Source: Myrmaecium sp. VS I D KN 1
Lineage: Eukaryota > Ascomycota > Dothideomycetes > Valsariales > Valsariaceae
Reading direction: 5' to 3'
Length of the DNA: 64,000 nt
Assembly: GCA_019775845.1 (NCBI GenBank)
Contig: JADQAV010000059.1
Span: 62,001 to 126,000 of the forward strand
Shown here: piece by piece, positions 1,645 to 60,952 of the stretch
Layout: the number at the start of each line of letters is the position of its first letter
Position numbering within the stretch: position 1 is the first letter of the stretch
The notes under the pieces: generated by a model
Database searches by the model: none
What the model saw: the letters and a program-made list of their open reading frames with translations, nothing else
Told to the model about the DNA's origin: nothing
Translations under genes and position numbers: made by a program

Positions 1645-3546
1645 CTACGCCACATAAGCCGGCGGCGCCTCACCCACCCCCTCCTCCCCATCCTCCTCCA
1701 GCGGGCGTCCCCAGAACCCAGCATTCGCATTCGCATTTGGCTGGGACTCCGACCGGTCCGCCGCGTGCCTCCCCTTCCCTTTCTCATCCTTAACCCGACG
1801 CTCGACCTCCTTGGCAATCTTGTTGATCCAAGCCTGCTCGAGGATGCCGCCGGACATGCCCATGCTGTCGCCGAACGGCTGCAGCGGAGTGGGGTAATGA
1901 TGATAGTGATGTTGATGGTGCGGTGGTTGTTGGTGTTGGGATTGTTGCTGCTGTTGCTGTTGTTGCTGCTGTTGGTGCAGCTTCTCGAAGCTGTAGGAGC
2001 GGAGCATGGGGTTTGCGGTCGAGGGGGGTTGGGAGTGGTAGTGGTGTCGGGGTGGGGCGGGGCGGATGGGGATGTTCTTTTCGGATGAGGGTGGGAGGGA
2101 GGATGGGGAGGAGGAGTGAGGAGGTGAGGCGGCGGAGACGGGCTTGTCGCTGGAGGAGAGAGAGGCGGACGAGTGGATGGTGGTGCCTTCGGCTGGGAGG
2201 TCGGGCCGTAGGCTGGGACGCCGCGAGCTGTTGAAACGGACGGCTTTGGCGGAAGAGTTGGCGGTGGGAGGGAGGGGTGAGTGCGGACGAGTGGGGAGTT
2301 CGGCTTCGACTTCTCCTCGGTCAATGGTGGAGTAGGCAACGGAGGACGATTCGGACGCGGTGACGCTGGGGTCGGGTGTCGCATCGGTGGTGACGCTGCC
2401 TGAGTCGCTGGCGGACTTGTCGCGCCGGAGGTTGACGATGCGGCGCTTCTTCGTGCGGTTCTGTTGTTGGCGGGTCCGTGCCGCGCTGATTCCGAGGCCT
2501 TGGTATGTGGCGGAGTTGAAGCTGTAGAGAGTGGGACGGGAGGAGTTGGAGCCGGTCTCGCTGTTGGACAGGCTGTGGGTCGAAGCGGTGCTGCTCATGT
2601 TCGATTGTACGCGGGAGAGACTGGACAGTGTGAGCGCAGGGGTGTTGAAGCCGGAGCTGTCAGCCCGTTCCGCAACGCCTGCCCAAGCACGGAAGACGGT
2701 GTCGCGAATCGATGGGGTGAAGAGCGAGAGCGTGCGTTGGGATTCGGTAAGAGCGGCCAGGCGCAACAGATTTTTCTGCGAAAACGATGCGTGGTGTTCG
2801 GTCGGCGGATCCAATGAGAACTCCGATATTTGACTGTCCTCCCCAAACAGATTGACAGGCTCGAGCGGAGGACTGGCGAGCGGATCTATCGGTTGCTCGT
2901 CCTTGTCCTGCGCTGCCTCTGCCGCAGCCATCTCCTTGTCCAGCTCCTGGTATTCCGGCGACCATAACCTAAGCGACAGACGATGGAGGATCGCCGGCAG
3001 GTCTTCCATGAACAGCACGCGCAACTGTCCCTCAATTTCCTTCTGTAGATAATCTCGAACGAACGGAATCGAATCGAAGGTGGAGGAGACTTTGAGCGAT
3101 TCTAGCGGATCGTTCCTGAACACCAGCGTCAAGCCTTTTTGCCGAGAGAAGACCAAGATGACGAAGCCGGAAAGGCGGATGTCGGACAGGGTGATCTGGA
3201 GGGGGATCGTCAGTCCAGACGCAGCGGCCAGCGGTTGCGGCGATGCGAAGGTCGGTTTCGTGGAGAGGTATGTGTTCAGCGGGTTCGCCTGCACTCTTGT
3301 TTTTAATGTAAGGAAGGCATCGCCAGTGTACGACATCTTGAAGATTCCTCGAAAGCGGTCTTCGGCAAGGTCGCCAATCTCCAGGATCTCCAGCTCCGGC
3401 GGCACGGAGCCCAGGTTGAGCTCGGTGACGATGATGTCGTCAACAATGATGGGCGGCTTGGGCGACTTGTTCAGGGCGGTGGTGAGCATGTCCCTCGCCC
3501 GGGAGGTGTCGGCAATGAGCGGCGACCAGTTGAAGTTGAACGCCAT
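1645..3546 (-). CDS. mdm34: Mdm34, ERMES outer-membrane subunit
   Basis: Single-exon gene for a 633-residue protein. It opens with [10 protein letters not shown], the conserved Mdm34 N-terminus, followed by the SMP lipid-transfer fold (about residues 1-200). Mdm34 is the mitochondrial outer-membrane part of the ER-mitochondria encounter structure and works with Mdm10, Mdm12 and Mmm1 in phospholipid transfer and mitochondrial morphology. The middle is Ser/Thr-rich and low complexity. A glutamine run followed by a His/Gln-rich stretch (CAG-type tract near 1930-1985) precedes the conserved C-terminal GGILEQAW segment. The protein ends in EAPPAYVA, which contains a PPxY motif; in yeast, Mdm34 is ubiquitinated by Rsp5. 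The ATG at 3546 was chosen because it begins the family motif; the frame stays open upstream but that extension is unlike the family. Confidence 0.95.
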
Positions 3547-6478: not shown

Positions 6479-8182
6479 ATGGCGGCGACTCAACATACTG
6501 CGGACGGTCAGAAGACCGGTGATCTCTATAGGAACTACATCGACGACCGCAATGCGACCTCCCAGGACACCCTCTACACCACCAGCAACGGCGTTCCGTA
6601 CCCTCACCCATACGAGACCCAGCGTGTGGGAGAGAACGGTCCTCTGCTCCTCCAGGACTTTCATCTGGTCGACCTCCTGTCTCACTTCGACCGTGAGAGG
6701 ATCCCGGAGCGCGTCGTCCATGCCAAGGGCAGCGGCGCCCACGGGTACTACAAGACCACCGATCCGATTCCCGACCTCTGTCTCGCCGACCTCTTCTCGC
6801 AAGCCGGCAAGACCTGTCCCATCACCGTCCGGTTCTCGACCGTGGGCGGGGAGTCCGGATCGCACGACTGCGCGCGCGACCCGCGCGGCTTCGCCGTCAA
6901 GTTCCGCACCGACGAAGGTAACTGGGACCTGGTCGCCAACAACACGCCCGTCTTCTTCCTGCGGGACCCGGCCAAGTTCCCGCACTTCATCCACACGCAG
7001 AAGCGGCATCCGGCCACGCACCTGAGCGGCGCGGACGACTCGACCATGTTCTGGGACTACCTCTCGCAGAACCCGGAGTCCATCCATCAGGTCATGATCC
7101 TCATGGGCGACCGGGGCATCCCGGACGGGTACCGGTTCATGCATGGGTACAGCGGCCACACGATGAAGCTCGTCAACAAGCAGGGCGAGTGGGTGTACGT
7201 CCAGTTCCACTTCAAGTCCAAGCAAGGGACCCGGTTCTTGACGCAGCAGGAGGCCGCGACCAAGTCCCCGGACCACAGCCAGAAGGACCTCTACTACGCC
7301 ATCGAGCGGGGCGAGTACCCGGGCTGGGACGTGGCCATCCAGACCATGACGCCGACGCAGGCCGAGGAGCTCTGGGAGAAGGAGAAGATCAACGTCTTCG
7401 ACCTGACGCACGTCTGGCCGCAGGCGCAATTCCCGCTCCGCAAGGTCGGCGAGTTCTACCTGAACGAGAACGCGAAGAACTACTTCGCCGAGGTCGAGCA
7501 GGCCACGTTTAACCCCGCCCACATGATCCCCGGCATCGAGCCGTCCGCCGACCCCGTCCTCCAATCCCGGCTGTTCTCCTACCCGGACACGCACCGGCAC
7601 CGCGTTGGCGTCAACTACCAGCAGCTCCCCGTCAACGCGCCGCGGACGCCGTACCGGCTCGCCAACTTCCAGCGCGACGGCAGCATGGCCTTCTACAACC
7701 AAGGCGCCCGACCCCCCTACCTCTCCTCCATCGAGCCCATCTCCTTCCGCCACCGGACCGTCGACCTGAGCAAGACGCACGGCCACTTCACCGGCAACGC
7801 CATCACCTTCCTCTCCGAGATCCGGCCGGAGGACTTCCGGTTCCCGCGCGCGCTCTGGGAGCGCGTCTTCGACGCCGGCGCGCGCGACCGCTTCGTCGCC
7901 AACGTCGCCGGCCACATGGCCAACTGCTTTGACCCCGAGATCATCCGCCGGCAGATCGCCATCTTCCGCGAGGTCTCGGAGGAGCTGGCGGCGCGGTTGG
8001 AGAAGGCGACCGGCGTCAAGGGATATCCGGGGATTGCGGGCTTGCGCTTTAATGGCACGCATAATGGGATGGCAAGGGAGCCGGGCTTGCGCGCGGCGAA
8101 TGGGCAGCGGGCGATGGTGCCGTTGAGTGTGACGGAGAATAATGGGGCGCCGACGGCGGGGACGCATAGGGGGTTGGCGTAG
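6479..8182 (+). CDS. monofunctional heme catalase
   Basis: Intronless gene for a 567-residue catalase, which converts H2O2 to water and oxygen. The distal signature RVVHAKGSGAHG carries the active-site His (about residue 81). The catalytic Asn is in VANNTPVFF (about 154). The heme-ligand signature RLFSYPDTHRHR carries the proximal Tyr (about 368). Length and the absence of a flavodoxin-like C-terminal domain place it with small-subunit catalases, though it is some 60 residues longer than the usual 500. There is no secretion signal. The C-terminus GTHRGLA does not match the peroxisomal SKL-type PTS1, so a cytosolic location is inferred. The ATG at 6479 (MAATQ) is used; upstream in-frame extension lacks an ATG. 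The long reverse open frame over this gene is a composition effect. Confidence 0.95.
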   Translation: MAATQHTADGQKTGDLYRNYIDDRNATSQDTLYTTSNGVPYPHPYETQRVGENGPLLLQDFHLVDLLSHFDRERIPERVVHAKGSGAHGYYKTTDPIPDLCLADLFSQAGKTCPITVRFSTVGGESGSHDCARDPRGFAVKFRTDEGNWDLVANNTPVFFLRDPAKFPHFIHTQKRHPATHLSGADDSTMFWDYLSQNPESIHQVMILMGDRGIPDGYRFMHGYSGHTMKLVNKQGEWVYVQFHFKSKQGTRFLTQQEAATKSPDHSQKDLYYAIERGEYPGWDVAIQTMTPTQAEELWEKEKINVFDLTHVWPQAQFPLRKVGEFYLNENAKNYFAEVEQATFNPAHMIPGIEPSADPVLQSRLFSYPDTHRHRVGVNYQQLPVNAPRTPYRLANFQRDGSMAFYNQGARPPYLSSIEPISFRHRTVDLSKTHGHFTGNAITFLSEIRPEDFRFPRALWERVFDAGARDRFVANVAGHMANCFDPEIIRRQIAIFREVSEELAARLEKATGVKGYPGIAGLRFNGTHNGMAREPGLRAANGQRAMVPLSVTENNGAPTAGTHRGLA

Positions 8183-9342: not shown

Positions 9343-11705
9343 ATGTCGTCCCAGCGCCGCTCTGCGCGCGCTCGAACGACCCAGCCACCCTCCGCCGTCG
9401 GCCCAGCGCCCAGCGTCTCCTCGTCCTCCACCTCATCGCACCGTGCCGAACGAAGCACGCGCTCGCACGGCAAGCAGCAATCGCCGCGAAAGTCGTCCAC
9501 GCCGCGGTCGCTGTCCTCCGAAGACGTCGACGAGTCCGGGCCCACCGCCCGCGGCGGCGCACCCGAGCCGCCGCTCACGCGACGACGCACCCGCGAACAA
9601 GACCACGACGGCGGTGGAGGCGGTGACGACGCCGCCGCCGCCGCCCACCGGGCCGACGATGACCTCGACGATGACATTCCCGACGAGGAGGAGGAGATCA
9701 CACGATGTGTCTGTGGCCACCAGGAGTACCCGGGGCCACCGTCGGAGGGCAAGTCGAAGGACGGCCCATCCGCATCATTGGCAGGCACTGACATCCCGAC
9801 TGACGAAGCAGGCGGCCTGTTCATCCAATGCGACGTCTGCAAGGTCTGGCAACACGGCGGCTGCGTCGGCATCATGGAGGAAGCCGCCAGCCCGGACGAG
9901 TACTTCTGCGAGGAGTGCCGGAAGGATCTCCACAAGCTCATGACGAGTTCGAAAGGGTGAGTTGTTCGTCGGAAGCTTTTCTTCATCGCATGGGTTGGAT
10001 GACGACGTGGTTTGGCTACCGTCTTCGTCGTTGACTGCCACCTCGCTACGGCTTGTTGGATGGCCACGGTGTCAAACGCAAGCTGTTTGCGTCTTTCCCA
10101 CGCTCATTCAATTGTCGATCCTCATTGCTGACGGCATTCTTACTACAGGCAAAAATACTCTCGCTACCTCCCGGTCTACGAAGAGCAGCCGGCTCATAAA
10201 CATCCCACCCGCAAAGCTTCTCCGAAGGAGAGCGACCACAAACAGTCGAGAGAGAAGGAAAGAGAGAGGAGCTCGCGTGGGAGTATCGATGCTACCAAGC
10301 GTCGCTCTACCATGAACAGCCGAGCTGCCTACGACGAGGACGAGGTGCTCCGAAAGGTGCTGGAAGAGAGCAAAACTGAGGGCGAGCACGGAGGTGCGGA
10401 TAATGATAGCAGGAAGAAGAAGCGCAGTCGCGATGAGAGTGAAGAGTATGTCATCCTGCTGCGACATCCTGACGATTGATGACTGACGCGTCTGGCGTGA
10501 ACAGCAGCAAGCAAGAGCTGAAGAGACAACGGACGGGCTCTCGATCGCCTGCGTCGACCCCATCTCCCGGCCCGGATGGCGAGATGCCGCGTAAGAACTC
10601 GCTTACGAATGGCAAGGCAAAACCGCGCGGAGCCGCTCTTCAGAGTCAACGTGAGAAGGAGCTTCGCGAGCGCGAGAAACAGCGCGAGCAGGAGAAGAAG
10701 GCCGCGGCCGACCGACGGAAGGAGCGGGCCGGTCGGCGACATGCAGATGGTAAGCATTGCAATACACACGATGCACGTTGCAAACTGACGCATGTAGATG
10801 AGGAACACACGGAGACACCGAATGAGAATACGAGCGATTCCCCCAACCCCGCGACCGAAACGCCGGTGGAAATCGAGACGAATACTCCTACGGAGACGAC
10901 CAAGGTTGAGACCGCTGCCCCCGTTCAACCACCAGAGCCAGTTCTTCCTCCTCCCTCGCCCGTGCCCACGCCGCAACCGGCTGCTTCCTCACATCGCAAG
11001 TCGGGTCGACCGTCCGCGAGCCACAAGCGCGGCGCCGGTCGCAAGGCCGCGCAAACACGCGACACAGAGTCACCGCATCGCGGGCGCGGGGCCATTCCCA
11101 ACGACAACCCACCCCAATCGCCCATCACGAACGGACACGCGAACGGCGTCGGGCACGACAGCGATGGCTCGCACGCCCAGCACCAAACCCAGGGGCGGGG
11201 GGCCCACCACCACAAGGGCAAGCATCATCATTCGGGCGAGAAGGACAAGTCGTCGAAGCTGCACCGGCTGGAGAAGACGAGCTGGAACGAGATCCGTCGG
11301 CCGGCCGGGCTGATGCAGCACTACATCGCGCAGAAGCAGATCGAGATGGCGGGTCAATTCGAGGATAACGGCGGCGGTGGCGGCGGCGGGTCCGGGGGAG
11401 CGGGCAGCCCGATGAACGGCCTGGCGGTCAAGGTCAACACGGTTGCGGCGCAGGCGACGATCGCGGCGGTGAAGGTGTTGCAGGTGGCCAGCGCGGCGGC
11501 CAGCGAGGGTGACGGGGAAGGCGGAGGCGGAGGCGGTGGCGGAGCGGTCCAGCCGCCGCCGCATGCCCCCCGCGCGGCTGCGGCACCGGAGACGGAGACG
11601 GAGGAGGATGAGCTGGAGGGCTTTCGCAGGCTGAGCACGGTCGAGATGATGGATCGGCTCAGTCGGGATCTGGTGCTGTGGCAGAAGATGCATGGGGCTG
11701 GGTGA
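9343..11705 (+). CDS. cti6: PHD-finger protein Cti6-like (Rpd3L complex)
   Basis: Four exons: 9343-9956, 10149-10445, 10505-10749, 10798-11705, giving 687 residues. Exon 1 holds a Ser/Arg-rich N-terminus, an acidic stretch (DDDLDDDIPDEEEE) and a PHD finger: CVCG, then C-x2-C in FIQCDVCKVWQHGGCVG, ending YFCEEC (about residues 120-195). It is followed by SRYLPVYEE, typical of fungal Cti6. The rest is low complexity: charged KEREKQREQEKK repeats, Pro-rich, His/Lys-rich and Gly-rich runs, then a conserved C-terminal helix (STVEMMDRLSRDLVLWQKM). In yeast, Cti6 belongs to the Rpd3L histone deacetylase complex and its PHD finger reads histone H3 lysine-4 methylation. Junction phases agree at all three introns. 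Function is assigned from domain order, not shown here. Confidence 0.85.
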
Positions 11706-11796
11706 GGGGGTGAGGGGTGGTCGGGATGGGGTGGTTTCTTTTGCCCGTTTTTTTCTTTTTTTTTCCCCCCTTTTTTCCTTTTTCTTTCTTTTTTTC

Positions 11797-11816
11797 TTGA
11801 TTGATTGATTGATTGA
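11797..11816. repeat. (TTGA)n microsatellite
   Basis: Five tandem TTGA units about 90 bp past the cti6 stop codon. A similar run overlaps the stop codon of the polymerase iota gene near 58968-58987. Confidence 0.8.
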
Positions 11817-12547: not shown

Positions 12548-12549
12548 TA

Positions 12550-12588
<39 letters not shown>
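12548..12588. repeat. (GTGTAT)n microsatellite
   Basis: About six to seven tandem copies of the hexamer GTATGT in non-coding DNA between convergent genes. Confidence 0.85.
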
Positions 12589-13007: not shown

Positions 13008-14177
13008 TCAAATCAACCCCCCGCCCACCACCGCCGCCAGCGCAACCGCAGCACCCACTCCCCATCCCCCACCCACCCGCAAACCCCCCGCCGCCGCCGC
13101 CGCCGCCCCACTCGACGCCGCCGTAACATGAATGCCCCCCACAATCTCCGTCGTCACATTCAACCTCCCGGTAACCGTCTCCGCAACCCCATTCACCGCA
13201 TCCACCGCCTGAATCGCCGGACCGACATTAAAGAAATCCACGAGGACGAAATTCGGTTTCTTCGCGTACGTGGCGGCACACGCGGCCAGACGCGCCGCAA
13301 TGCTCGAGGAGATGGTGGGGTCGGGGGAGTTGGTGGTGGCGACGTTGGCCACGTCCGGGGTTTCGATGCCGAAGGCTTGGAGCTCGTCGAGGAAGTGGTT
13401 CATGAGGAACAGACGGCCGCTGACGAGGGCGGCTTCGGGGCTTCCCGCCAGGGAGGCGGGGCGGTCGGGGAGGCAGCTGAGATTCGCGGCGGAGGTGACG
13501 TCGTAGGCGTTTTCGAAGACGTGGTCGAATTCATTGAGCAGGTAAGGGGCGCCGGTGTTGTTGGCGAGGCTGGCGACGAAGGTGACGAGCCGGGTGTTGG
13601 CGGCGATCATGTCGGACAGGTTGGGCCATTGGAGGGTGGCGCTTTTGGCGGTGCCGTTGGCGTCTTCGACGCCGACGTCTTCGGCGGCCGTCGGGCTGAA
13701 GACGTAGGTGGTGATGCCGGAGATTTCGTATTCGCTGGCGAAGTCGGCGGCGGTGAGGTCGTCGCTGTTGACCAGCACGACCGTGACCACGTCGGACGGG
13801 TTCGCGTCCAGCCACTGCTTGATCTCGGCGAGCCAGGAGCTGAGGGTGCCGGCGTCGAGGAGGGCGCAGGAGGAGTGGCAGAGGTGCCACTCCGTCGTCC
13901 CTTCGTCCGTTTCGTAGGCGTGCACCTGCGCGGTCAGCAGCCGGACCCCGGCGTCGAGCTGGACGGTCGTGTTGAAGAACTGGTTGCCCGAGGTGGTGTA
14001 GTCGTTGCTGGCCGTGCGGAGGAAGGGCGAGTCGTGCGCGCCCAGGTAGGTGATGTTGTGGTAGTGCCGCGCGCAGAGCTCGGGCGAGTTGTTGCACGCC
14101 TGGGCCGTGACGGCAGGGAGCAGGGAGAGGAGGGGGAGGGCGACGGCATGGAGGATGGTGGGGATCGAGAGGCGCAT
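13008..14177 (-). CDS. secreted GPI-anchored PLC-like phosphodiesterase
   Basis: Intronless, 389 residues. A signal peptide (about 1-25, MRLSIPTIL.. ending AVTAQA) is followed by a PI-PLC X-type TIM-barrel fold. YLGAHDSPF gives the first catalytic-type His and HLCHSSC a second His/Cys segment typical of the fungal family. The chain has seven or more N-glycosylation sequons (for example NIT, NTT, NGT, NLS, NVT). The C-terminus has small residues, then a hydrophobic tail (GAAVALAAVVGGGLI), the pattern of a GPI-attachment signal. I infer a cell-wall or plasma-membrane protein of the PLC-like phosphodiesterase superfamily. There is no Y domain or calcium-binding module, so it is not a eukaryotic signalling PLC. 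The substrate is unknown. Confidence 0.85.
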   Translation of the reverse strand: MRLSIPTILHAVALPLLSLLPAVTAQACNNSPELCARHYHNITYLGAHDSPFLRTASNDYTTSGNQFFNTTVQLDAGVRLLTAQVHAYETDEGTTEWHLCHSSCALLDAGTLSSWLAEIKQWLDANPSDVVTVVLVNSDDLTAADFASEYEISGITTYVFSPTAAEDVGVEDANGTAKSATLQWPNLSDMIAANTRLVTFVASLANNTGAPYLLNEFDHVFENAYDVTSAANLSCLPDRPASLAGSPEAALVSGRLFLMNHFLDELQAFGIETPDVANVATTNSPDPTISSSIAARLAACAATYAKKPNFVLVDFFNVGPAIQAVDAVNGVAETVTGRLNVTTEIVGGIHVTAASSGAAAAAAGGLRVGGGWGVGAAVALAAVVGGGLI

Positions 14178-16003: not shown

Positions 16004-16846
16004 ATGGATCCTCATCACCCGCCTCACGAGAACGCGGCCGGGCTGCATCTGTCCACTCCGCAGTCACTCTCCCAGCTTCCCGCTCAACCGCACGGCCTGT
16101 CGCCTCTCGAAGAGCTAGCTCACCAAGCAAGCCAACTTCCTCACTTGCCCGCCAACATCGACATTGACATCGACATGGCCTACACCGACATGCCAGACGC
16201 CGTAACCTCCCACAACCCTTCCGGTACCGAGGGAACCACCGCTGCCGGCACCGACTCGGGAACAGACTGCGACCACCAAACCAGCACCGAGGACACCGAC
16301 GTCAGGGACGATCCCACCTCCGACAGCGACAGCGACACCGACGCCAACGAAGCCGACACTTTCACCGACGCCATCGACAACCTCGCCGGCGCCACCGCCC
16401 AATGGGCACACACCATACCCCCCACCCTCACGCTAATGCAGCAGCTGAAAACGCGCGGCAGCACCGCCGCCGCCGCCACCAAGGCCAAGGCCCTACACGC
16501 CGAGTGGACCGCAACCTGCCTCCCGCTCCTCAAAACCCACCACCTCAACTGCGTGGCCGGCGCGATCGAGACGAACCTCACGCTGTGCGAGCGCGGCGGG
16601 GCACTCTGCGGGCGGGTCGCGGAGGCGTTTGGCGTCGTCGCGGCGGAGGCGCAGGAGAAGCGGGCGTGGGCGGCGGAGTTGGTGCTGCGGTGGCGGGAGA
16701 TGGTGCTGCGTAGGGAGGCGTGCGGGAATGAGGGGTTGCATCCGCTGTGGGGACGACTGCAGCGCCGGCCGCCGTGTTGTGCTGGGTTGGTGTATCCGCG
16801 CTCGACGGCGGAGGGGGATGTGTGGGCTTGGTTGTTTGATGAGTGA
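16004..16846 (+). CDS. unrecognised intronless protein, 280 aa
   Basis: I do not recognise this protein. The ATG at 16004 (MDPHHPPHENAAG) is the first in a frame open to 16846. Residues 1-85 are Pro/His/Leu-rich, about 85-130 are acidic with Asp/Ser/Thr repeats (DSDSDTDANEADTF), and 145-280 are Ala/Leu/Glu-rich and probably helical, ending in a Trp-containing tail (VWAWLFDE). There is no signal peptide or membrane segment. Third positions are C-rich in the first two thirds and abruptly G-rich in the last 250 nt, as in neighbouring real genes, which supports coding status. It is probably a lineage-restricted protein; intron-free structure and lack of a domain leave some doubt. Confidence 0.55.
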   Translation: MDPHHPPHENAAGLHLSTPQSLSQLPAQPHGLSPLEELAHQASQLPHLPANIDIDIDMAYTDMPDAVTSHNPSGTEGTTAAGTDSGTDCDHQTSTEDTDVRDDPTSDSDSDTDANEADTFTDAIDNLAGATAQWAHTIPPTLTLMQQLKTRGSTAAAATKAKALHAEWTATCLPLLKTHHLNCVAGAIETNLTLCERGGALCGRVAEAFGVVAAEAQEKRAWAAELVLRWREMVLRREACGNEGLHPLWGRLQRRPPCCAGLVYPRSTAEGDVWAWLFDE

Positions 16847-19040: not shown

Positions 19041-19934
19041 ATGAAAGACGACCACGCCACCCTCGCCCAGCGCAACCACATCCGCAACCTCATCCACTAC
19101 TCCGACCAGCTCGCCACCCACACCCAGGAGCTCCGCGCCCTGCTCTCCACCAACCTCTCCCACCAATCCATCCTGCACAAGCTCGGCACCGCCCAGTACC
19201 GGAAGTTCATCGAGCTGTGCGTGCAGCGGGAGCGGCTGCAGCGCGCCATCGCCCGCGACCCCGCCGTCGCCCGCCTCGCCCGCCACTGCCCCATCATCCG
19301 CGCCGTCGCCGGCTTCACGATGCCGGCGCCGCCTCCGGCTGCGCGCGAGACGGCCGGTGACCGACAGATCCCATACGCCCCGGCTGCGGCGGCGGCGGCG
19401 CCCACCGCGGAACCAAGTCTGACGGACATTTGGCTCGCGCGTGAGCTCGCGGAGCAGCACGCCAACGACGACAACGCCGGCGGAGCACCGGCCCCCGTCG
19501 CCACCGAACGCAAGACCAGCGCGTCACTCTTCGACATGGACTCCCCCCCACTCTCCGCCCGTCTGCCCGTCGAACAGGCGCAGCCGCAGTCACAGCAGCA
19601 GCAGGAGCAGGAGCAGGAGCAGCACCCCACCAACCTCCCAACCGCCGCCGACTACCAAACCACCGTCCCCATCGTCACCGTGAGCAGCCAGGCCTACCTG
19701 GCCTACCTGCAGATGCGGCGGCTGTACCACCGGCTGCGCGCCCGGGTGAACGAGATCCACCTGTACCAGGCGCGCGCCCAGCGGCTGGATCGGGGGGCCC
19801 GCTTGCTCCGCTGGGACCTGGAGGATGTGGAGTGCCAGCGCGCCGCGGTGGATCGCACGATTCGGCGGTTGCAGCATGAGAGTATGGACCCGGAGGGCGC
19901 GGAGGCGTATCAGGAGGAGGATTTGTATGCGTGA
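19041..19934 (+). CDS. unrecognised coiled-coil, Gln-rich protein, 297 aa
   Basis: Intronless; I do not recognise the family. The ATG follows a C/A-rich leader typical of fungal 5' ends. Residues 1-95 form a charged, probably helical region (MKDDHATLAQRNHIRNLIHY..). A Pro/Ala-rich linker follows, then a helix with DIWLARELAEQHAN (about 127-140), a Gln/Glu-rich run (about 177-195), and a C-terminal stretch with heptad-like Leu/Arg spacing (about 214-288) that suggests a coiled coil. There is no signal peptide or membrane segment. The C-rich to G-rich switch at about 19700 matches the neighbouring genes. A structural or scaffold role is only a guess. Confidence 0.6.
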   Translation: MKDDHATLAQRNHIRNLIHYSDQLATHTQELRALLSTNLSHQSILHKLGTAQYRKFIELCVQRERLQRAIARDPAVARLARHCPIIRAVAGFTMPAPPPAARETAGDRQIPYAPAAAAAAPTAEPSLTDIWLARELAEQHANDDNAGGAPAPVATERKTSASLFDMDSPPLSARLPVEQAQPQSQQQQEQEQEQHPTNLPTAADYQTTVPIVTVSSQAYLAYLQMRRLYHRLRARVNEIHLYQARAQRLDRGARLLRWDLEDVECQRAAVDRTIRRLQHESMDPEGAEAYQEEDLYA

Positions 19935-26875: not shown

Positions 26876-28415
26876 ATGGATCGCGCCCTGGACGAAGTCA
26901 TTGCCGAAAGGGAGCAACGCCGCCCCGTAAGTCAGCTGTAGTTTCCGCCGGCCGCGAATTTCGGAACTGATGATAATGCCAGCAGCGAGGGAACGGCCGT
27001 GGTCCCCGAGACCGTCGCAACAACTATCCCCGTGACGGTGTTAGAAAGGTATGTACTTCCATCTGCCCTAGCGGTCACACGGCACCTCAGCTAACATCGG
27101 GATCGAACCAGGTTCTTTCTCCTTCCTCCTTCCTCCTCCTCCTCCATCCTCAGTGAAGCATTCGGGCGTTTCCACCGGGCAACCCTGTGCAGCTGCTTTT
27201 CTCCACTCATACTCTCTTCGATGCGCAATCCGATCGGGTGTTCTTTTTCAGGCCGACATTGCTGGTAAATATACAGAGACAATCCGCTGACTCAGGTTTC
27301 TCCCTCTTCGATAACAGTTTACGAGGGATGAGTCCAGGGACCTTGACCGGTACGCTACACTCGGGCTCAACAGGGGGCGGTGATCTTGGGGAACACGACC
27401 AACTGACTGTCTACAGCGATTGGGTCCATGACAAGTACGAAGATGACGACAGTGCGTTAATCGGCAGCAAGGCCTAGCCACCACCTCTACTCACCTCTGC
27501 TTTCAGCCCGTCGCCCAACCCGCCGCAGCCGTCCCGAACGCGAATTGTTCCCTCGCGACGATGAGCCGTGAGTGCAAGGAAAGCCAGTGACCACCAACTC
27601 GACCTGACTTGCCCCCCTGCAGAGCCGACGCCGGTGCCCGTCTCCGCGTGGACAACCTCCATTACGACCTCACAGAAGACGATATTCGCGAGCTTTTCAG
27701 CCGCATCAGCCACGTCCAGAGCGTGCAGCTGCTCTATGACCGCCAGGACCGCAGCAAGGGCACCGCTTTCGTGACATACTCGCGCATCGGCGATGCCCGT
27801 CGCGCCATCCGCGAATTCGACGGGGCCAACGCCTATGGGCAGCCCATCCATCTGACCTTGGTCCAGTCGCGACCCTCGCGAAACCCCTTCGACAGCGCCG
27901 TCCCCCCCTCCCGCAGCCTCTTCGACCGCATCGAGCGCGACCGCAGCGCCAGCCCGCGCGGGGATCGCGATCGCATCCGCCACAGCGACGTTTCCCGACC
28001 GGCCCCCGAGCACATCGACCGTTACGTCCCCGACGACCGTTCCACCAGCCGGCGTCGTTCCCCCGCTCCGCGCCGCGCCGGAGGTCGCGACAGCGGTCGT
28101 CGACCGGGTCAGCGCCGTGAGGGCGGCCGTCGGAATGCCAGCAAAGACGGGGATGGCCGCCCGCTCGCCCAAGGCCGGCCGCGCAAGACCCAAGAAGAGC
28201 TCGACGCGGAGATGGAGGACTACTGGCGGAGCAACGCCGGGGCCGGGAACGACGCGGCGGCCGCCGCCGCTCAACCCGCTCAACCTGCCCAGATCGCCAC
28301 CGAGCATTCGGGTATGGTCAACGGACAGGGCGAGACGAACGGCGCGCATGCGAACTTCAACGCCGGCACGACGGCGCCGGCGATCGCGGATGATGATATC
28401 GACATGATTGAGTAA
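26876..28415 (+). CDS. yra1: Yra1/ALY-REF mRNA export adaptor
   Basis: Six exons: 26876-26926, 26983-27048, 27318-27349, 27417-27451, 27507-27567, 27623-28415, giving 345 residues. The N-terminus MDRALDEVIAERE matches the UAP56/Sub2-binding motif of ALY proteins, followed by an RG-rich basic stretch and SDWVHDKYEDD-like sequence (here R-DWVHDKYEDDD). The RRM spans about 88-160 with RNP2 LRVDNL and RNP1 KGTAFVTY. After an Arg/Ser-rich region, GRPRKTQEELDAEMEDYW (about 265-282) is the C-terminal Sub2-binding box. Yra1 acts in TREX and hands mRNA to the Mex67 export receptor. Two internal exons are only 32 and 35 nt; their phases (0 to 2, 2 to 1) join exactly. Exon 2 could start 3 nt later, losing one Gln. 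Confidence 0.88.
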
Positions 28416-45348: not shown

Positions 45349-45380
<32 letters not shown>

Positions 45381-48217: not shown

Positions 48218-50164
<1,947 letters not shown>

Positions 50165-50919: not shown

Positions 50920-52380
50920 TTAAACATCCTTCCTCTTCTCCTCCTTCTCCTTCTCATGCTCCTTCCCCTCCATCTCCCTCTCCCCCTCCCCAACCCTCCA
51001 CCCAACAACCCAATTCATCCACCCCAGCGGCCACGAATGACACCGCCTCCCGCCCTCCAAAACCCAGTCCCCCACCCGCACGCGTCGGACCACCGTCCCA
51101 TCAGGCGCGTACCTGCGCTGTTCGGGCGGCACCTGCGCGGGCGCAAGGCCCTGGGCGCGGGCCACCATGTCGCGGACCTCAGGCCACTCGTACGTGCGCA
51201 GGCAGCTGACGAGGCCATCCCAGACGAGGGTGAGGGGCAGGATGGGGATGGCGTAGGTGAAGAGGAGGGTGAGTGGGTCGCGCCAGAACCAGAGGGGCGT
51301 GACGAGCAGGAGGAGGGGCAGGTCGGCGAGGAGGAGGAGGATGGAGGCGAGGCGGCGGTCTTGCAGCTCCACCAGGGCGAGGGCGGAGGCGGTGGCGGTG
51401 CTGCTGTGCAGGAGGGCGGAGGCGGGACCCGGGGAGAAGTGGTGGAAGGAGAGGGCGAGGTGGTGGAGGGAGGGTCCGGGGAGGGCGAGGAGGGTGGGTG
51501 GGGGCGAGGTTGCGTCGACGGGGTGCCCGAGGTAGGTGATGTGGGGGTTGTGGGCGGCGTGGTGGCGCCATTGGGGGAGGTGGGGTTGGAGGTCGGTGAG
51601 GACGAAGGGGAGGGGCGGTTGGTGCTGGGCGGCGCGTCGGGCGTTGAGGGTGGCGCAGATGTGAGGGGTCGGTCCTGGAAGAGAGATGCGAGGTCAGGTT
51701 AGTGGTTGCGGAAAGGGGAGCGGGATGGCTTACCGCCGCCGCCGGAGCAGAAGTCGATGACGCGGATCGGCCGGCTGGCGGGCGGGATCTGCTCCAGGGT
51801 GTCGTGGATGAGCTGGGCGGCGAGCTCGGCGGGAGCTTGCTTCTGCACCAGCGGGAGCCGGTGCGTCCACTGGGCCGTGAGCATGGCCTGGCAGCGGCGG
51901 CGGAGGAAAGCCGGGTACCTGCCATCTCTGCCGTTAGCTGCATCACTGGAGATAGACGGCTCAACAGGGGATTGATCACTCACCACTCCTGATCACACAG
52001 CTCAAAGAGATGCAGCCGCCTCGGCGTCACAGGCACGTTGATCGCACGGCCAACGCGATTACACCAGTCGACGAACCGTCTCCACGCCGACCGGCTGCTG
52101 GTGGTCGCGGGTGCCATGCTCGCTGCCTCTCCTGGCTGGCTCTGTTGGTGAGGCTCGGCGGACGCTGGTAGGTCATCAATCAGCTTCCAATTCAACTCCG
52201 GCTTAGCTTCCGCGTCAACGTACCTGTACTTTCGTTCACCTTCGTCCCGCCAATCGGTGGACCGGCGGAGTACGATCGCAACGTGACAAGTGGTCTGGAT
52301 GAAGGAGGAAGTAGTAGTAGTAGAGACCGAAGAGATGGCGCAGGTCGTCTCCGGAACGACGTCGCGGCACGGAAGCTCAT
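50920..52380 (-). CDS. SAM methyltransferase with mitochondrial leader and hydrophobic C-terminus
   Basis: Four exons: 52380-52224, 52164-51984, 51918-51734, 51674-50920, giving 425 residues. Exon 1 encodes an Arg/Ser/Leu-rich leader (MSFRAATSFRRRPAPSLRS.. ending LRSYSAG) typical of a mitochondrial presequence; it joins exon 2 in frame across a 59-nt intron. If exon 1 is not used, translation could begin at 52117 (MAPATTSS). Motif I of class I methyltransferases reads IRVIDFCSGGGPTP, assembled across the exon 3/4 junction. LTDLQPHLPQW is the likely acidic motif II region. Two hydrophobic stretches near residues 283-305 and 310-335 suggest membrane attachment, and the extreme C-terminus is Glu/Lys-rich. 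Substrate unknown; a lipid or quinone substrate would suit a membrane enzyme, but that is inference. Confidence 0.78.
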
Positions 52381-53619: not shown

Positions 53620-54768
53620 TCAACTCCCCCCCGCGCCCCCGGCGCCGGTGCCGCTACCCCCCAAACTCCTCTCCTCCATCCCCGATGCAGCGGAAGCAGT
53701 AGCCACCGACGAAGCACAGTCCCTCCCAATCGGACCGAGCGTCCAGACCCACTGCCTCCGCCGTTTCCGCCGGCCGGCGACGGGCGTTTGCGGACAGCCG
53801 CCGGCAGCAGAAGAGGAGGAGGAACCCGAGTCGGAGTCGGAGTCGCTGTCTGTTTCGGGCTCTGAGGAGTCGGAGTCGCGTTTCTCGCCTGCGCGGGGCG
53901 AGTGGGTTGTGCTTGTGCTCGTGTTTGTGTTTGTGCTTGGTGGTTTGGTGGAGGAGGTGGGGTGGTGGGGGGAAGATGAGGATGAGGAGGGGGTGGAGGT
54001 GCGGATGGAGTGGGATTCGGTGGGGTGTTCGGAGTGGGTTGGTGACTGTGTCTTTGAGGATGATGAGGAGGAGGTGTCGGTGGAGACGGAGGAGACGGAG
54101 GAGATGGAGGAGGAGAGGTCCGAGTGCGCCAGGATGTACTTGGTCGTTTTGATCTCCTCGTCTAGTGGGGTGCGGAAGGACACCCGCTTTTGCACGGGGA
54201 ACATGGGCCGGGTCGAGGACGTCATCTTGCGTTGCCGGACGGATGGCAGAGGGCTGTTGGTGAGGATGGAGAGCTGGTTGCGGGGGAGCTGGTACGGGAC
54301 TTTGATCGTTCCGGACTCAGAAGAGGAGGATGGGGATGAAGTGGTAGCAGATCCTCGGGTCGAGGCAGATGTCGGGGTGGTGGTGATGGAGAAGTGAGCA
54401 GTGGATCCCTGGCTGGCCGAGCTGTCGATGGATAATCGCGGTTTGGATGGTTTCTCTGTTGCTGGCGCGGATGAAATCGGTGGCTCATAGGCGTTGCTGA
54501 AGGTGTTTCTGACCGTCGGGGAGACGGCGGAGAGGGTGTCTAGTCGCAAGCTCGCTGCTCTGCCAAACACTCTGGTCTGGTCGGTGTCCAGGGTCAACTT
54601 GGGCCGTCGAGAGTGAGGTACGGGCGCGGAGGAAGGAAGGGAGCGCCGCTGCAGCGGCGGGGGAGGTAATATGGCCAGCGAGGCGGTCATGGTGGAGGGT
54701 GCGAAGTGTTCATGGGACTGCTGGGCAAAGGTGGACTGTGACATAGGGTACGGGATGGCGAGCATCAT
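53620..54768 (-). CDS. Ser-rich protein with PP1-docking (RVxF) motif
   Basis: Intronless, 382 residues from the first ATG in frame (MMLAIPYPM). The protein is dominated by Ser, Thr and Pro. Two ordered-looking blocks stand out: MFPVQKRVSFRTPLDEEIKTTKYILAHSDL split over residues 189-218, and a basic-aromatic C-terminal block GRRKRRRQWVWTLGPIG (about 332-348). KRVSF (194-198) is a canonical RVxF docking motif for the catalytic subunit of protein phosphatase 1, and it is followed by a conserved-looking acidic/Lys segment. I infer a PP1 regulatory or targeting subunit, possibly nuclear because of RRKRRR. No enzyme domain is visible, and I cannot name the family. Confidence 0.7.
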   Translation of the reverse strand: MMLAIPYPMSQSTFAQQSHEHFAPSTMTASLAILPPPPLQRRSLPSSAPVPHSRRPKLTLDTDQTRVFGRAASLRLDTLSAVSPTVRNTFSNAYEPPISSAPATEKPSKPRLSIDSSASQGSTAHFSITTTPTSASTRGSATTSSPSSSSESGTIKVPYQLPRNQLSILTNSPLPSVRQRKMTSSTRPMFPVQKRVSFRTPLDEEIKTTKYILAHSDLSSSISSVSSVSTDTSSSSSSKTQSPTHSEHPTESHSIRTSTPSSSSSSPHHPTSSTKPPSTNTNTSTSTTHSPRAGEKRDSDSSEPETDSDSDSDSGSSSSSAAGGCPQTPVAGRRKRRRQWVWTLGPIGRDCASSVATASAASGMEERSLGGSGTGAGGAGGS

Positions 54769-56243: not shown

Positions 56244-58975
56244 ATGGACGGCCAGCTGCAAAGGAAAGCGCTGCAGGCCAGAATCATCTTGCACTTTGTC
56301 AGTACCATCCATCCACCCTTGACTTGCACCTGTCCCCTGTCCCCTGCACCTGCTCCCTGTATGTACCTTCACCTGCCCGTATCCAGCCAGTCACTTCGCT
56401 TCCCTCGTCAGTCCCCTTGTTTTTCTCTCCAAGTCCCACCGTCCCGTCCCACTCCCGCCGTCTTGCGGCATACCGGTGACAGCCGAAGTGGGGCCGGAGC
56501 GGGTCATCGGATGGGAATGGAATGAAACCCTCTCGCGCATCTGCTTTGCCTGCCTGCCTGATGGTTGTTGTCTTTTTTCCTATTCCTGCAAACAGCATGT
56601 CGTACCGCTTGACGGCTGCCGTGCAGTGGACTCGCTTCTGACAGATTCATCTTGCCCTTTCAGGATTACGTACGTTCGGTCCACGACCAATCTTTCGGTT
56701 TGGGGGATCTCAGCTGAATCAGCCCGGTGTTAATAACCCGCGGCTCGTGTTCAGGATTGCTTCTATGCCTCCGTCTTCGAGGCCGAGACGCCGGCCCTCC
56801 GTGCGCTGCCGCTCGCCGTCCAGCAGAAACAAATCGTCGTAACATGTAACTACGTCGCGAGAGAGCGGGTAAGTACGAAGAAGTTGAAACCCTCGGATCG
56901 GCTGTCGGGCCCTCCACCGCAGCTCATCCTCCCACATACGAAATGACCCACTCCTGTTTCCCCTCCGATCACGTCGTGTTGCAACTGCTGACCGTCCCGA
57001 CACTCACGACTGCTGCGGCAGGGCTTGCGCAAACTGCAGCTGATCCAGCACGCGAAGCAGATCTGCCCGGACCTCGTCATCGTCCTCGGCGAAGACCTCA
57101 CCCGCTTTCGCAACGCCTCCAAGCAGCTCTACAACTTCATCCGGTCCTTCTCGTGGAGCGGTCGGGTCGAGCGACTCGGTTTGGATGAGGTATGTGTTAT
57201 ACAATAGGTGGTATGTGCATGTCAGCACGTACGAGGCCCTCACAGCCTCCCCGCCGATGATCCAACAACGATCTTCGCCCTTCCCCCATGACTCGTCATC
57301 GCTCCCGGACCACCGCCTGCCTGTTCCTAACCGCAACCTCCAACAGGTCTTTCTGGACGTAACCGACCTCGTCGACTACAACCTCGAGCTGCTAAATCGG
57401 GATGATCTGCCACACTCCTTCTTCTGCCTCTCCAAAACCGACCCCACCGTCGGGTTCAGCTACGATGCCTCCGCCGTCACCGGCAACACGTATCCTCCTC
57501 GCCACGAGCGCCCCGACCCCCATCTCACGGATCGCCGCGCAACCACCGCCCCGGAAACCGAAGCCACCGCTCTCATTCACGATCCTCTCGCGCTCCGCCT
57601 CACCCTCGCCTCCCACCTCGCCCAGCACATCCGCCATGCGCTGGAGGAGCAGAAAGGCTACACGGCCACCGTGGGCGTGTCGACCTCGAAGCTGCTCGCG
57701 AAGCTCGTCGGCAACGTGAAGAAGCCCCGGAGCCAAACGACCCTGCTGCCCCCCTACGCCCTCCCCACCGATTCCGACGCCGACTCCGACTCCCTCCCGC
57801 ACCCGCCCAGCAACTTGACCGCCTTCCTCGACGCCCACGAGATCGGCAAGATCCCGGGGATCGGCGTCACGATCGCGCGGAAGCTGCGCGCCTACGTCCT
57901 CGACCACGGACCAACGGGCGGAGTCGTCCGCTCCGCGGTCCTGCTCCGCTCCTCCGCCCGAGACGCCCAGGATGGGCAGACGGAGCCGGAGGAGGCGGAG
58001 CAGGAGCATCAGCAGACAGAACAGTACGACCACCCCCCAGTTCTGGTCCGCGACGTGCGCACGCACCCCTCCCTCTCCCCCTCCATCCTTGAAACCCTCC
58101 TCGCCGGGCCGGGCGCGGCACGCGGCATCGGCCGACGCATTTGGCACCTCCTCCACGGCCTCGACGCCGCCGACGTCCAACCCACCCGCGCCTTCCCCCG
58201 CCAGATCAGCGTCGAGGACTCGTACCGCGGCCTCACCAGCCTGCGGGATGTCGACGCCGCACTTACCGCCTTGAGTCGGAGTCTGCTGCGGCGGATGGAG
58301 GATGAGCTGCTCGATGACGACGAGCCGGAAGTCGGGCAGCAGCGGCGTTGGCTCGCGACCCCGCGCTCGCTGCGCTTGAGCACCCGGCCTCGGCGGCCCC
58401 CGCCCTCCGGGCCAGAGCGAAACGAGCGTACCTACGCCCCCTCGCGCCGCACCTCCCGCTCCATCCCTTGTCCCGCGTGGCTCTTCCACCTGCACGTCCC
58501 GATTGAGGCCCGCGCCGAGCGCATGGTGCGGGAGTGCTTGGTGCCGTTGTTTCGTCGGTTGCATCCTCCGTCGGGCGGGTGGGAGCTGAGTTTGCTTAAT
58601 GTGGCGGTGATGGGGATGGGTGAGGGTGCTGTGGTGACTGGGAGGGGGTTGGGGGGGTGGTTGGGTGGTGGGGGGCTGCATTCGCGGGGTGATGAGGATG
58701 ATCATCTGCACCAGTCGCTTTCGCGGAACGGTGGCGGTGGTGGTGACGGTGACGGTGAGGTCGTCGCTGCTGCTGCTGAGGTGGTCAATGGAGGAGGGGA
58801 GGATATGTGGATTGAAGAAGAAAATGAGGAGTTAGAGCTAGATGACGAGGTCGACGCGGATGAAGAGGAGGAAGAGGAGGAGCACTCCCCCCTCACCCGC
58901 TGCCCCCGCTGCGGCGCCCGGATGCCGGATTTCGCCAGGGCGGCGCACGAGAGGTTCCACGCGTTTGGGGATTGA
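56244..58975 (+). CDS. DNA polymerase iota (Y-family) with C-terminal UBZ finger
   Basis: Five exons: 56244-56297, 56664-56669, 56755-56868, 57022-57189, 57347-58975, giving 656 residues. The N-terminus reads IILHF-DY-DCFYASVFE, the Y-family motif I. PLAVQQKQIVVTCNYVARERGLRKLQLI and VIVLGEDLTRFR match polymerase iota rather than eta or kappa, and VERLGLDEVFLDVTD supplies the second acidic motif. The little-finger region follows (VGVSTSKLLAKLVGN, helix-hairpin-helix IPGIGVTIARKL). After low-complexity Gly- and Glu/Asp-rich segments, the tail has C-x2-C-x11-H-x3-H (CPRC..HERFH), a ubiquitin-binding UBZ-type finger. It is an error-prone translesion polymerase acting at stalled forks. Exon 2 is a 6-nt micro-exon (DY). 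The first donor is GTCAGT, a weak form. Confidence 0.88.
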
Positions 58976-59022
58976 TTGATTGATTGATGAATGGATGGGT
59001 TGCGGTGGGGGGAAGAAGAGAA

Positions 59023-59069
<47 letters not shown>

Positions 59070-59070
59070 A
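58968..59070. repeat. (GATT)n over the stop codon, then (CT)n
   Basis: Four GATT units (58968-58987) overlap the polymerase iota stop codon. About 40 bp later, a (CT)n run of some 45 bp with one interruption spans 59025-59069. Confidence 0.85.
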
Positions 59071-60061: not shown

Positions 60062-60952
60062 TTAATAACCCGTCGCACCAGGGGCCTTCTCATCCTTCCG
60101 CAAGCTCAGCAGCAGCTCCCGGAAGCGCGCCTTCTCGGAGCCGGAGCCGCCGCCGCGGGCGCCCTTGCCGCTCAGGTCGACGAGCTTGGCGATGCGCTCC
60201 CAGCTGGTGCCGCCGGCGGTGGTGTCGTCGCGGCTGTTCAGGAACTCCTCGGCCTCGCGGCGCGTCTGCGCCATCTGCTTCTCGCGCTTGGCGTTGTAGT
60301 TCTCGTAGAAGGCGTCGATGTTCTGCTGGGCCTCCTGGATCGTCTGGGCCTTCTTCTCCGCGGCGCGCTCCTCCCGGTGCTGGATCTGGAGGTCGCGGCG
60401 CTCGCGCCATTCGCGGATCACTTCGGGCTCGTCTTCTTCTTCTGCCTGGGCGTGCGGCTGCGGTGTAAAGGAGGAGATGGGGGCGCCGGGCAGGTAGGGC
60501 AGTGTGCTGCCGGTGATGGTGCCGCCGGGTGCCATGTGCTATGTGGGCTGGATCAGCTGGGTGCTCGGTAATGGAGCGCGTATCAGGTTATACGGACCTC
60601 GTTTGTGGTGTCGATCGCCGGGAAGGAGCTCTGGAATTCCGACTCGTCAGCGGTGCCGCTGGCACCGAAGTCACCACCTCCACCTAGCAAGTCGTTGTCT
60701 CCGGCGTCCTCCACCGTTGCGGCGAGGTTGTCGGCGTCGGTTGCGAATTGGTTGGCGTCATCGCCCAGCAGAGCCCGTTCGCGGGAGAGGAAGTCATCGG
60801 CGTCGGCGGCCTCGCCGACGAGATCGAGGTTCGCTTCGCCGCGCGGTTCTGTATTTCCTATGGGGTTGTGCGTGAGATTCCTGCTGTACGGATGAGCTGT
60901 GGATGTACGTACCCGCATCGATCTCCTCTAAGGAGGGAAATCTGTCGGCCAT
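60062..60952 (-). CDS. clc1: clathrin light chain
   Basis: Three exons: 60952-60913, 60857-60598, 60538-60062, giving 258 residues. It begins MADRFPSLEEID and is acidic to about residue 100 (DDFLSRERALLGDD). After VAPGGTITG-like sequence (here HMAPGGTITGSTLPYLPG) comes the heavy-chain-binding helix: EVIREWRERRDLQIQHREERAAEKK, DAFYENYNAKREKQ and SWERIAKLVDLS, the hallmark order of fungal clathrin light chains. The protein regulates clathrin triskelion assembly on Golgi, endosome and plasma-membrane coats. The second donor is GTCCGT, atypical, but the phase-0 join to CACATG keeps the family sequence. It is head-to-head with rtt103, 377 bp apart. Confidence 0.93.

What the first reader, a model, noticed from the sequence alone, without database searches (positions are those of the whole stretch)
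1645..60538. C-rich to G-rich strand switch near the 3' end of most genes
Read on the sense strand, many genes are C-richer for most of their length, then flip sharply to G-rich in the last 100-450 nt. My counts in 60-nt blocks: catalase 7741-7800 G14/C27 against 8101-8160 G30/C11; polymerase iota 57541-57600 G10/C29 against 58621-58680 G38/C4; the gene at 16004 has 16021-16080 G14/C26 against 16681-16740 G33/C8; the PLC-like gene (sense) C28/G12 at 13380-13321 against G39/C8 at 13080-13021. By eye the same flip occurs in mdm34, cti6, the gene at 19041, yra1, vma2, the methyltransferase, the Ser-rich gene and clc1, on both strands. Because it follows gene orientation it is not a replication effect. 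Possible causes are transcription-coupled mutation bias, R-loops, or G-rich RNA needed for 3' end formation.
Basis: seen in the sequence. Interest (0 to 1): 0.72.

Follow-up and report, generated by a model that had tools for sequence, protein, structure and literature searches.

The report
Fungal genes switch C-rich to G-rich
Many genes of this fungus use C-ending codons for most of their length and then change to G- and T-ending codons around the stop codon; this is a real, strand-locked feature of a kind already described in many fungi, whose cause is still open.

Summary
All 8 counts given are exact. With gene models blind to C-versus-G choice, third-position GC skew changes sign about 240 nt before the stop in 82 genes from 304 kb; 59 of 82 shift upward, p 4e-7. 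It recurs at homology-anchored 3' ends across the genome: 35 of 40, p 1e-7; 42 of 48 after 8 more.

It is already known: McLean and Tirosh (2011, PMC3315797) describe it, and their fourth group (C-biased gene, small G-biased 3' region) matches.

Beyond the parts of that paper I read: the strongest genes' domain spans about -250 to +100 nt around the stop; T3 rises with G3; neighbour orientation does not matter; P450 genes switch fully, chaperones only partly; amplitude rises with GC3 and differs between regions; G-quadruplex motifs are not in excess. Codon-level, protein-tail and downstream-promoter explanations fit poorly.

My preferred, unproven cause is strand-specific cytosine mutation on an exposed sense strand at 3' ends, opposed by codon selection. 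No substitution direction was observed, because no related genome was available. An intron association in predicted models did not replicate.

The parts
1645..1812 (-). G-rich 3' domain of the mdm34-like gene (1645-3546); change point 165 nt before the stop, G/(G+C) at third positions 0.36 to 0.85
7976..8182 (+). G-rich 3' domain of the catalase gene (6479-8182); change point 204 nt before the stop, 0.36 to 0.85
   Evidence: (Catalase, E 8.5e-178)
11574..11705 (+). G-rich 3' domain of the gene at 10312-11705; change point 129 nt before the stop, 0.56 to 0.85, p 0.03
   Evidence: no Pfam match
13008..13220 (-). G-rich 3' domain of the PLC-like gene (13008-14177); change point 210 nt before the stop, 0.23 to 0.94
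16640..16846 (+). G-rich 3' domain of the gene at 16004-16846; change point 204 nt before the stop, 0.27 to 0.95
   Evidence: no Pfam match
19317..19934 (+). less C-rich 3' part of the gene at 19041-19934; change point 615 nt before the stop, 0.22 to 0.53
   Evidence: no Pfam match
28104..28415 (+). less C-rich 3' part of the yra1-like gene (27328-28415); change point 309 nt before the stop, 0.23 to 0.46
   Evidence: RRM_1 and FoP_duplication
31503..31649 (-). G-rich 3' domain of the gene at 31503-32431; change point 144 nt before the stop, 0.48 to 0.97
   Evidence: no Pfam match for the other exon
33145..33378 (-). 3' domain of the ABC-transporter-like gene (33145-35605); change point 231 nt before the stop, 0.43 to 0.67, p 0.045; last-60-codon test not significant (p 0.20)
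   Evidence: ABC_membrane, ABC_tran
49679..50164 (+). less C-rich 3' part of the vma2-like gene (48725-50164); change point 483 nt before the stop, 0.30 to 0.51
   Evidence: V- and A-type ATP synthase C-terminal domain
50920..51138 (-). G-rich 3' domain of the gene at 50920-52117; change point 216 nt before the stop, 0.27 to 0.88
   Evidence: no Pfam match
53771..54616 (+). G-rich later part of the gene at 53600-54616 (two exons); change point 693 coding nt before the stop, that is near its 5' end, 0.28 to 0.75; no shift in the last-60-codon test (-0.04)
   Evidence: no Pfam match
58271..58975 (+). G-richer 3' part of the pol-iota-like gene (57257-58975); change point 702 nt before the stop, 0.29 to 0.62; the last-60-codon test alone is not significant (p 0.22)
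   Evidence: (IMS, E 1.5e-5)
60062..60136 (-). short G-rich tip of the clathrin-light-chain gene (60062-60918); change point 72 nt before the stop, 0.33 to 0.79, p 0.02; last-60-codon test not significant (p 0.25)
   Evidence: Clathrin_lg_ch E 1e-57

Best explanation
This is the fungal intragenic GC-skew pattern of McLean and Tirosh (their fourth group), in strong form. Shown here: in many genes a domain running from about 250 nt before the stop codon to about 100 nt after it, in which the sense strand loses C and gains G and some T, following a gene body and 5' region that are C-rich. Inferred: the 3' domain mainly reflects strand-specific mutation while the sense (non-template) strand is exposed near the end of transcription units. 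Cytosine damage there would be fixed as C-to-G and C-to-T; in strongly expressed genes, selection for C-ending codons would hold the change back. Gly/Glu/Val/Arg-rich C-termini and G-quadruplex motifs would be by-products.
For: Sign change about 240 nt before the stop in 82 genes. It recurs in Pfam-supported genes: 36 of 46 up, p 4e-6; in homology-anchored 3' ends: 35 of 40; and in the last 50 codons inside the domain match: 33 of 40. All 8 four-fold boxes lose C, without a strong neighbour-base preference. The first 50 nt after the stop follow the skew of the last 60 codons (rho 0.46, p 1e-5), fading by +150, so codon choice alone is not the level of action. Predicted introns within 350 nt of the stop are less C-skewed than earlier ones (22 against 70, p 0.04), and intron skew follows flanking exon skew (rho 0.33, p 0.001). 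The third-position AT skew moves with the GC skew: per-gene rho -0.55, p 9e-8 (82 genes, unselected); near -0.48 against far -0.16 in 40 anchored ends, p 0.006. In the 34 strongest genes, which were chosen by end skew, four-fold C falls 0.56 to 0.14, G rises 0.31 to 0.64, T 0.06 to 0.15, A stays 0.07. C-to-T plus C-to-G is what bypass of abasic sites left by cytosine deamination in single-stranded DNA gives in yeast (PMC6765108, passages). P450 genes switch (mean near skew 0.43) while HSP70/TCP1 genes reach only about zero on average (-0.01), p 0.007, as expected if codon selection opposes the process. No G-quadruplex excess: 19 seen, 17.7 +/- 2.1 in synonymous shuffles.
Against: No substitution has been polarised; composition alone does not show mutation. 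Transitions cannot explain the purine rise at four-fold sites (0.37 to 0.71 in the selected set, 0.38 to 0.53 in all 82), so transversions are required, and G gains far more than T. A transcription-linked process should be stronger in highly expressed genes; the trend is the reverse. The C-rich body is not explained by the same process, and 5' and 3' skews are uncorrelated between genes (rho -0.03). The skew of the 22 introns nearest the stop does not follow their gene's end skew (rho 0.01, p 0.97). Blocks C1 and C5 have mean shifts near zero, which a general transcription effect does not predict. 10 of 82 genes have a significant step the other way. The 3' UTR beyond +100 is barely skewed, although it too is transcribed. 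The yeast transcription-associated abasic sites reported in PMC6063437 (abstract) come from uracil put in place of thymine, not from cytosine damage.
Confidence: 0.45

Rival explanations
1. Selection on the transcript: a C-poor, G/U-rich stretch around the stop is favoured, for example for Pol II speed (the C-avoidance idea of McLean and Tirosh), open mRNA at the stop codon, or 3'-end formation.
For: The domain lies around the stop codon and reaches into the start of the 3' UTR. It is confined rather than gradual: a step is preferred to a whole-gene gradient in 38 of 44 genes with a significant upward step, 6.7 expected.
Against: Weaker, not stronger, in chaperone genes than in P450 genes. Mean shift near zero in two 50-kb blocks where 17 of 25 genes have Pfam support. 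No excess of G-quadruplex motifs. No dependence on the downstream gap.
Confidence: 0.22
2. Mirror-image process at the 3' nucleosome-free region: antisense transcription, or strand breaks with end resection, makes the antisense strand C-rich at its own 5' end, so the sense strand ends G-rich.
For: The pattern reads C-to-G on both strands, and G plus T at the end would mirror C plus A at the start. It is independent of neighbour orientation: convergent 0.357, tandem 0.359, p 0.98. In the 34 strongest genes A slightly exceeds T in the first 100 codons (0.121 against 0.103).
Against: Not a true mirror: C-skew extends 200 nt and more upstream of the ATG, whereas G-skew is 0.06 by 50-100 nt after the stop. 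In all 82 genes third-position A does not exceed T near the start (AT skew -0.16 to 0.03 over the first 600 nt). 5' and 3' skews are uncorrelated.
Confidence: 0.15
3. Divergent or promoter activity of the downstream gene causes it.
For: None found here.
Against: Convergent and tandem genes do not differ (37 and 39 genes, p 0.98). Gap length has no effect overall (rho 0.04 with end skew, 76 genes); weak opposite tendencies within convergent (rho -0.23, p 0.17) and tandem (0.28, p 0.08) genes are not significant.
Confidence: 0.02
4. Codon-level (translation) selection or amino-acid composition of protein C-termini.
For: Gly, Trp, Glu, Val and Arg are enriched in the last 60 codons of the 34 strongest genes (set chosen by skew), and first and second codon positions shift too.
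Against: Synonymous sites switch in all 8 four-fold boxes; conserved domains switch (33 of 40); the start of the 3' UTR follows.
Confidence: 0.04
5. Artefact: wrong strand, wrong gene models, or overlap with an antisense gene.
For: Long antisense ORFs overlap the named genes, and the pattern looks alike on both strands.
Against: The gene finder ignores C/G choice at degenerate third positions. Pfam matches fix the strand of 46 complete genes, 36 of which shift up; homology-anchored ends agree.
Confidence: 0.02

Closest known systems
Opposite GC skews at the 5' and 3' ends of fungal genes, fourth group (McLean and Tirosh 2011, PMC3315797; abstract and parts 1-3 of 4 of the main text read)
   Same: [quoted passage not shown] they find only very weak correlation with expression.
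   Different: They report AT skew as flat along genes and positively correlated with GC skew, over all codon positions, and use that against C-to-T deamination. Here, at third positions, T rises with G. They note that GC skew falls with GC content; here the end-minus-body shift rises with GC3. Neighbour orientation, regional differences and per-gene change points are not in the parts I read.
C-skew near transcription starts in plants and some fungi (Fujimori et al. 2005, PMC555766; abstract and section list)
   Same: C-rich sense strand upstream of the start codon; here -0.31 in the 50 nt before the ATG.
   Different: By its abstract it concerns 5' ends.
G-skew and R-loops at human gene 3' ends (recalled, that paper not read; RNA:DNA hybrids at human terminators: PMC7414224 abstract)
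   Same: G-rich sense strand at the gene end; exposed non-template strand.
   Different: In the human work, as I recall it, the skew lies at or past the poly(A) site and depends on close neighbours; here it peaks before the stop and ignores neighbours. No hybrid data here.

Membership tests
[quoted passage not shown]
   third-position skew -0.11 to -0.28 in bins 240-840 nt before the stop, 82 genes at most; weaker further upstream, -0.20 to +0.07 beyond 840 nt with fewer genes
[quoted passage not shown]
   0.35 in the last 60 nt, zero crossing at about 240 nt; 35 of 40 anchored ends shift upward
Fungal opposite GC skew pattern, fourth group (McLean and Tirosh 2011) | Extends into the 3' UTR and is seen at four-fold sites | tested here: met
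   +0 to +50 nt skew 0.245, correlated with end skew; four-fold sites switch
Fungal opposite GC skew pattern, fourth group (McLean and Tirosh 2011) | AT skew flat along the gene (reported by them, not used to define the groups) | tested here: not met
   third-position AT skew shifts by -0.26 on average, p 4e-6. Their measure was over all codon positions; on that measure the 34 strongest genes here go from 0.04-0.17 upstream to about 0.01.
R-loop / G-skew terminator class (human) | RNA:DNA hybrids at the G-rich segment | not testable with these tools
   no hybrid-mapping or RNA data
R-loop / G-skew terminator class (human) | Dependence on a close or convergent neighbour (recalled) | tested here: not met
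   convergent against tandem p 0.98; gap length no overall effect
Functional G-quadruplex elements | Motifs in excess of composition | tested here: not met
   19 observed in the last 300 coding nt of 34 strong genes; synonymous shuffle 17.7 +/- 2.1, base shuffle 21.7 +/- 3.5, codon-order shuffle 12.0 +/- 3.0

The most novel reading that the evidence does not exclude
Gene 3' ends in this fungus carry the scar of a localised, strand-specific mutator. The sense strand is single-stranded within about 250 nt of the stop, and its cytosines are converted to G and T (cytosine damage, uracil removal, Rev1/Pol zeta bypass), strongly enough to swap most C-ending for G-ending codons in some genes. The activity is set by chromosomal region, and selection on codons resists it in core genes.
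Probability: 0.2. Interest if true: 0.65.

Novelty: already known. Interest (0 to 1): 0.36.

Why it matters
The pattern shapes codon usage and C-terminal amino acids in many fungi (PMC3315797), and that paper left its cause open. If the joint rise of G and T at third positions holds in related genomes, an argument made there against cytosine deamination weakens and the mutational account becomes directly testable. Anyone using codon bias, antisense ORFs or GC skew to annotate such genomes should expect the switch.

Tried and rejected
Downstream-promoter effect: rejected, convergent and tandem genes alike. Gap length: no overall effect. G-quadruplex selection: no excess over synonymous or base shuffles, though above a codon-order shuffle (19 against 12.0 +/- 3.0). 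Protein-tail and codon-level causes: disfavoured. Intron protection: predicted genes with a last exon under 350 nt lack the switch (end skew -0.06, 25 genes, p 2.6e-4), but homology-anchored ends whose last open frame is under 450 nt do not differ (6 against 33, p 0.95; 1 of the 40 fell in neither class), so I treat it as a gene-model artefact or an underpowered lead. Strict step against short ramp: unresolved. A step beats a plateau-plus-ramp in 36 of 44, but simulated ramps give 62%; by more than 2 log units it is 14 of 44 against 16% in simulation. Only a whole-gene gradient is rejected. Mixed-organism assembly as the reason for regional differences: unlikely, because by my reading of the hits one set of TCP1/HSP60-type genes is spread over the contigs, C1 and C5 included. 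Regional weakness on C1 and C5: repeated in anchored ends (5 against 35, one-sided p 0.005; 8 against 40, p 0.006), but one of the C1 ends added (L066) switches, so it is not contig-wide; for L066 no stop was reached in the fetched stretch. GC3 dependence: not significant within the 20 mitochondrial carriers alone (rho 0.26, p 0.26). Literature: the rows listed (lists capped at 8 to 20 rows) held no later paper on this 3' pattern in fungal nuclear genes that I recognised; only open-licence papers are held.

Limits: 304 kb of about 25.7 Mb was modelled; gene models are my own HMM without RNA evidence; species unidentified; no related fungal genome was available. The finder gave 147 genes, of which 63 under 150 aa were dropped, and 2 of the remaining 84 were incomplete and dropped. 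The 34 'strong' genes were chosen by end skew, so their composition is inflated. Pfam was run on 73 of the 84 genes (longest exon, or the whole ORF); the other 11, with longest exons of 69-179 aa, were not run and count as unsupported. Some upstream hits used for the 'far' skew contain in-frame stops (probably introns) and were counted as they are.
Full report
What was checked. Codon-position profiles of six of the named genes show that the change lies at third positions, and in several genes at first positions as well. The window is contig C49:62001-126000 of a 25.66-Mb genome in 66 contigs.

How genes were defined. I wrote a two-strand HMM gene finder with introns, whose codon model averages C and G (and A and T) at third positions within synonymous boxes, so that third-position skew cannot choose strand or reading frame. 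It was run on 304 kb: the window, 50-kb blocks of C1, C5, C9 and C13, and 20-kb blocks of C17 and C21. It gave 147 genes, 84 of at least 150 aa, 82 of these complete.

Result on predicted genes. Third-position skew is -0.25 to -0.28 at 540-780 nt before the stop, crosses zero at about 240 nt and reaches +0.35 in the last 60 nt; four-fold sites do much the same. Further upstream than 840 nt the mean is weaker (-0.20 to +0.07, fewer genes). The shift between the last 60 codons and the rest is positive in 59 of 82 genes (Wilcoxon p 4e-7); 38 of 82 are significant against synonymous shuffling and 6 of 82 are significant the other way. In genes whose strand is fixed by a Pfam match, 36 of 46 are positive, p 4e-6; in the other 36, 23 are positive, p 0.002.

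Independent result on anchored 3' ends. Using coordinates of Pfam hits in the whole genome, I fetched 40 gene ends: 20 mitochondrial carriers, 10 P450, 3 HSP70 and 7 TCP1-type. Skew within 180 nt of the stop exceeds that more than 300 nt upstream in 35 of 40, p 1e-7. In the last 50 codons inside the domain match, 33 of 40 exceed the upstream value, p 6e-7, so the effect is not confined to variable protein tails. Eight more ends bring this to 42 of 48; one of these, L066, reached no stop codon, so 41 of 47 are stop-anchored.

Shape. In 44 genes with a significant upward change, a step beats a whole-gene gradient in 38, against 6.7 expected if the gradient were true. A step is not clearly better than a plateau followed by a short ramp. 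Ten of 82 genes have a significant downward change. The median upward change point is 250 nt before the stop (quartiles 188 and 557) and does not scale with gene length (rho 0.03). In the 34 strongest genes the skew is 0.39 over the 50 nt after the stop, 0.14 over the next 50 and near zero by +200. Upstream of the ATG the sense strand is C-rich: -0.31 in the first 50 nt, still -0.22 at 150-200 nt.

Which bases change. At four-fold sites of the 34 strongest genes (chosen by end skew), C falls from 0.56 to 0.14 while G rises from 0.31 to 0.64, T from 0.06 to 0.15, and A stays at 0.07. In all 82 genes the purine share of four-fold sites goes from 0.38 to 0.53 and the G+T share from 0.42 to 0.61. 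Across all 82 genes, the GC-skew shift and the AT-skew shift at third positions are correlated at -0.55, p 9e-8, and the 40 anchored ends show the AT shift too, p 0.006. Every four-fold box takes part, and no neighbouring base stands out strongly. C-to-G plus C-to-T is the spectrum that bypass of abasic sites gives in yeast single-stranded DNA (PMC6765108, passages). In yeast, transcription-associated mutations include those from abasic sites, but there the uracil is said to replace thymine (PMC6063437, abstract), so that work is only a loose parallel. That cytosine damage acts here is inference: no substitution was observed.

Introns. Predicted introns follow the skew of their flanking exons (rho 0.33, p 0.001), and those within 350 nt of the stop are less C-skewed than the rest (-0.03 against -0.16, 22 against 70, p 0.04). 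Against this, the skew of those 22 does not follow their gene's end skew (rho 0.01, p 0.97).

What it depends on. Convergent and tandem downstream neighbours give the same shift: 0.357 and 0.359, p 0.98. Gap length does not matter overall. The shift rises with GC3: rho 0.55 in predicted genes and 0.40 in 48 anchored ends, though not significantly among the 20 carriers alone. It differs between blocks: C9 mean 0.73 with 15 of 15 positive, window 0.46, C13 0.46, C21 0.40 (4 genes), C17 0.13 (5 genes), C1 -0.03, C5 0.00 (Kruskal-Wallis p 3e-4; after removing GC3, p 0.07). Anchored ends on C1 and C5 are again weaker, with one exception on C1. P450 genes switch (mean near 0.43, 9 of 10 up) while HSP70 and TCP1 genes rise in 10 of 10 but only to about zero on average (-0.01), p 0.007; I take these as low- and high-expression groups from general knowledge, without expression data. 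Skew at the 5' and 3' ends is uncorrelated between genes.

What it does not depend on. Motifs able to form G-quadruplexes lie on the sense strand of the strong ends (19 sense, 0 antisense; in all 82 genes 20 and 4) but are no commoner than synonymous or base shuffles give. An apparent absence of the switch in predicted genes with a 3'-proximal intron did not recur in the few anchored ends that could test it.

Comparison with print. McLean and Tirosh (PMC3315797; abstract and parts 1-3 of 4 of the main text read) describe C-bias at 5' ends and G-bias at 3' ends in most unicellular fungi. [quoted passage not shown] The present finding is that pattern. They argue against C-to-T deamination because AT skew is uniform along genes and correlates positively with GC skew over all codon positions; at third positions here the AT skew falls as the GC skew rises. 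C-skew near starts in plants and some fungi was reported earlier (PMC555766, abstract).

Verdict. The remaining interest lies in its strength, the joint G and T gain, the regional differences and the weaker switch in chaperone genes, which together make a mutational origin opposed by codon selection my best guess, at modest confidence.

Noticed in passing
C1 and C5, 100001-150000 each (loci L002-L006, L007-L011), against C9 (L012-L016): The mean 3' shift is near zero in two 50-kb blocks and positive in 15 of 15 genes of another, within one genome; GC3 accounts for part of this.
   Followed up: partly
window 39275-40973 (+): Gene with FAD_binding_1 and NAD_binding_1 domains shows a shift in the opposite direction (one-sided p 0.988).
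   Followed up: no
L012:3039-7601 (-): Open frame of 1520 aa without a Pfam match and with a strong reversed pattern (G-rich then C-rich); possibly a spurious ORF or two genes.
   Followed up: no
G000:C13:649285-650388 (+): P450 domain inside an open frame of 1062 aa; perhaps a P450-reductase fusion of the CYP505 type (recalled, not tested).
   Followed up: no
predicted genes with last exon under 350 nt (25 of 82): These predicted genes show no 3' switch on average; not reproduced in 6 anchored ends with a short last open frame.
   Followed up: partly
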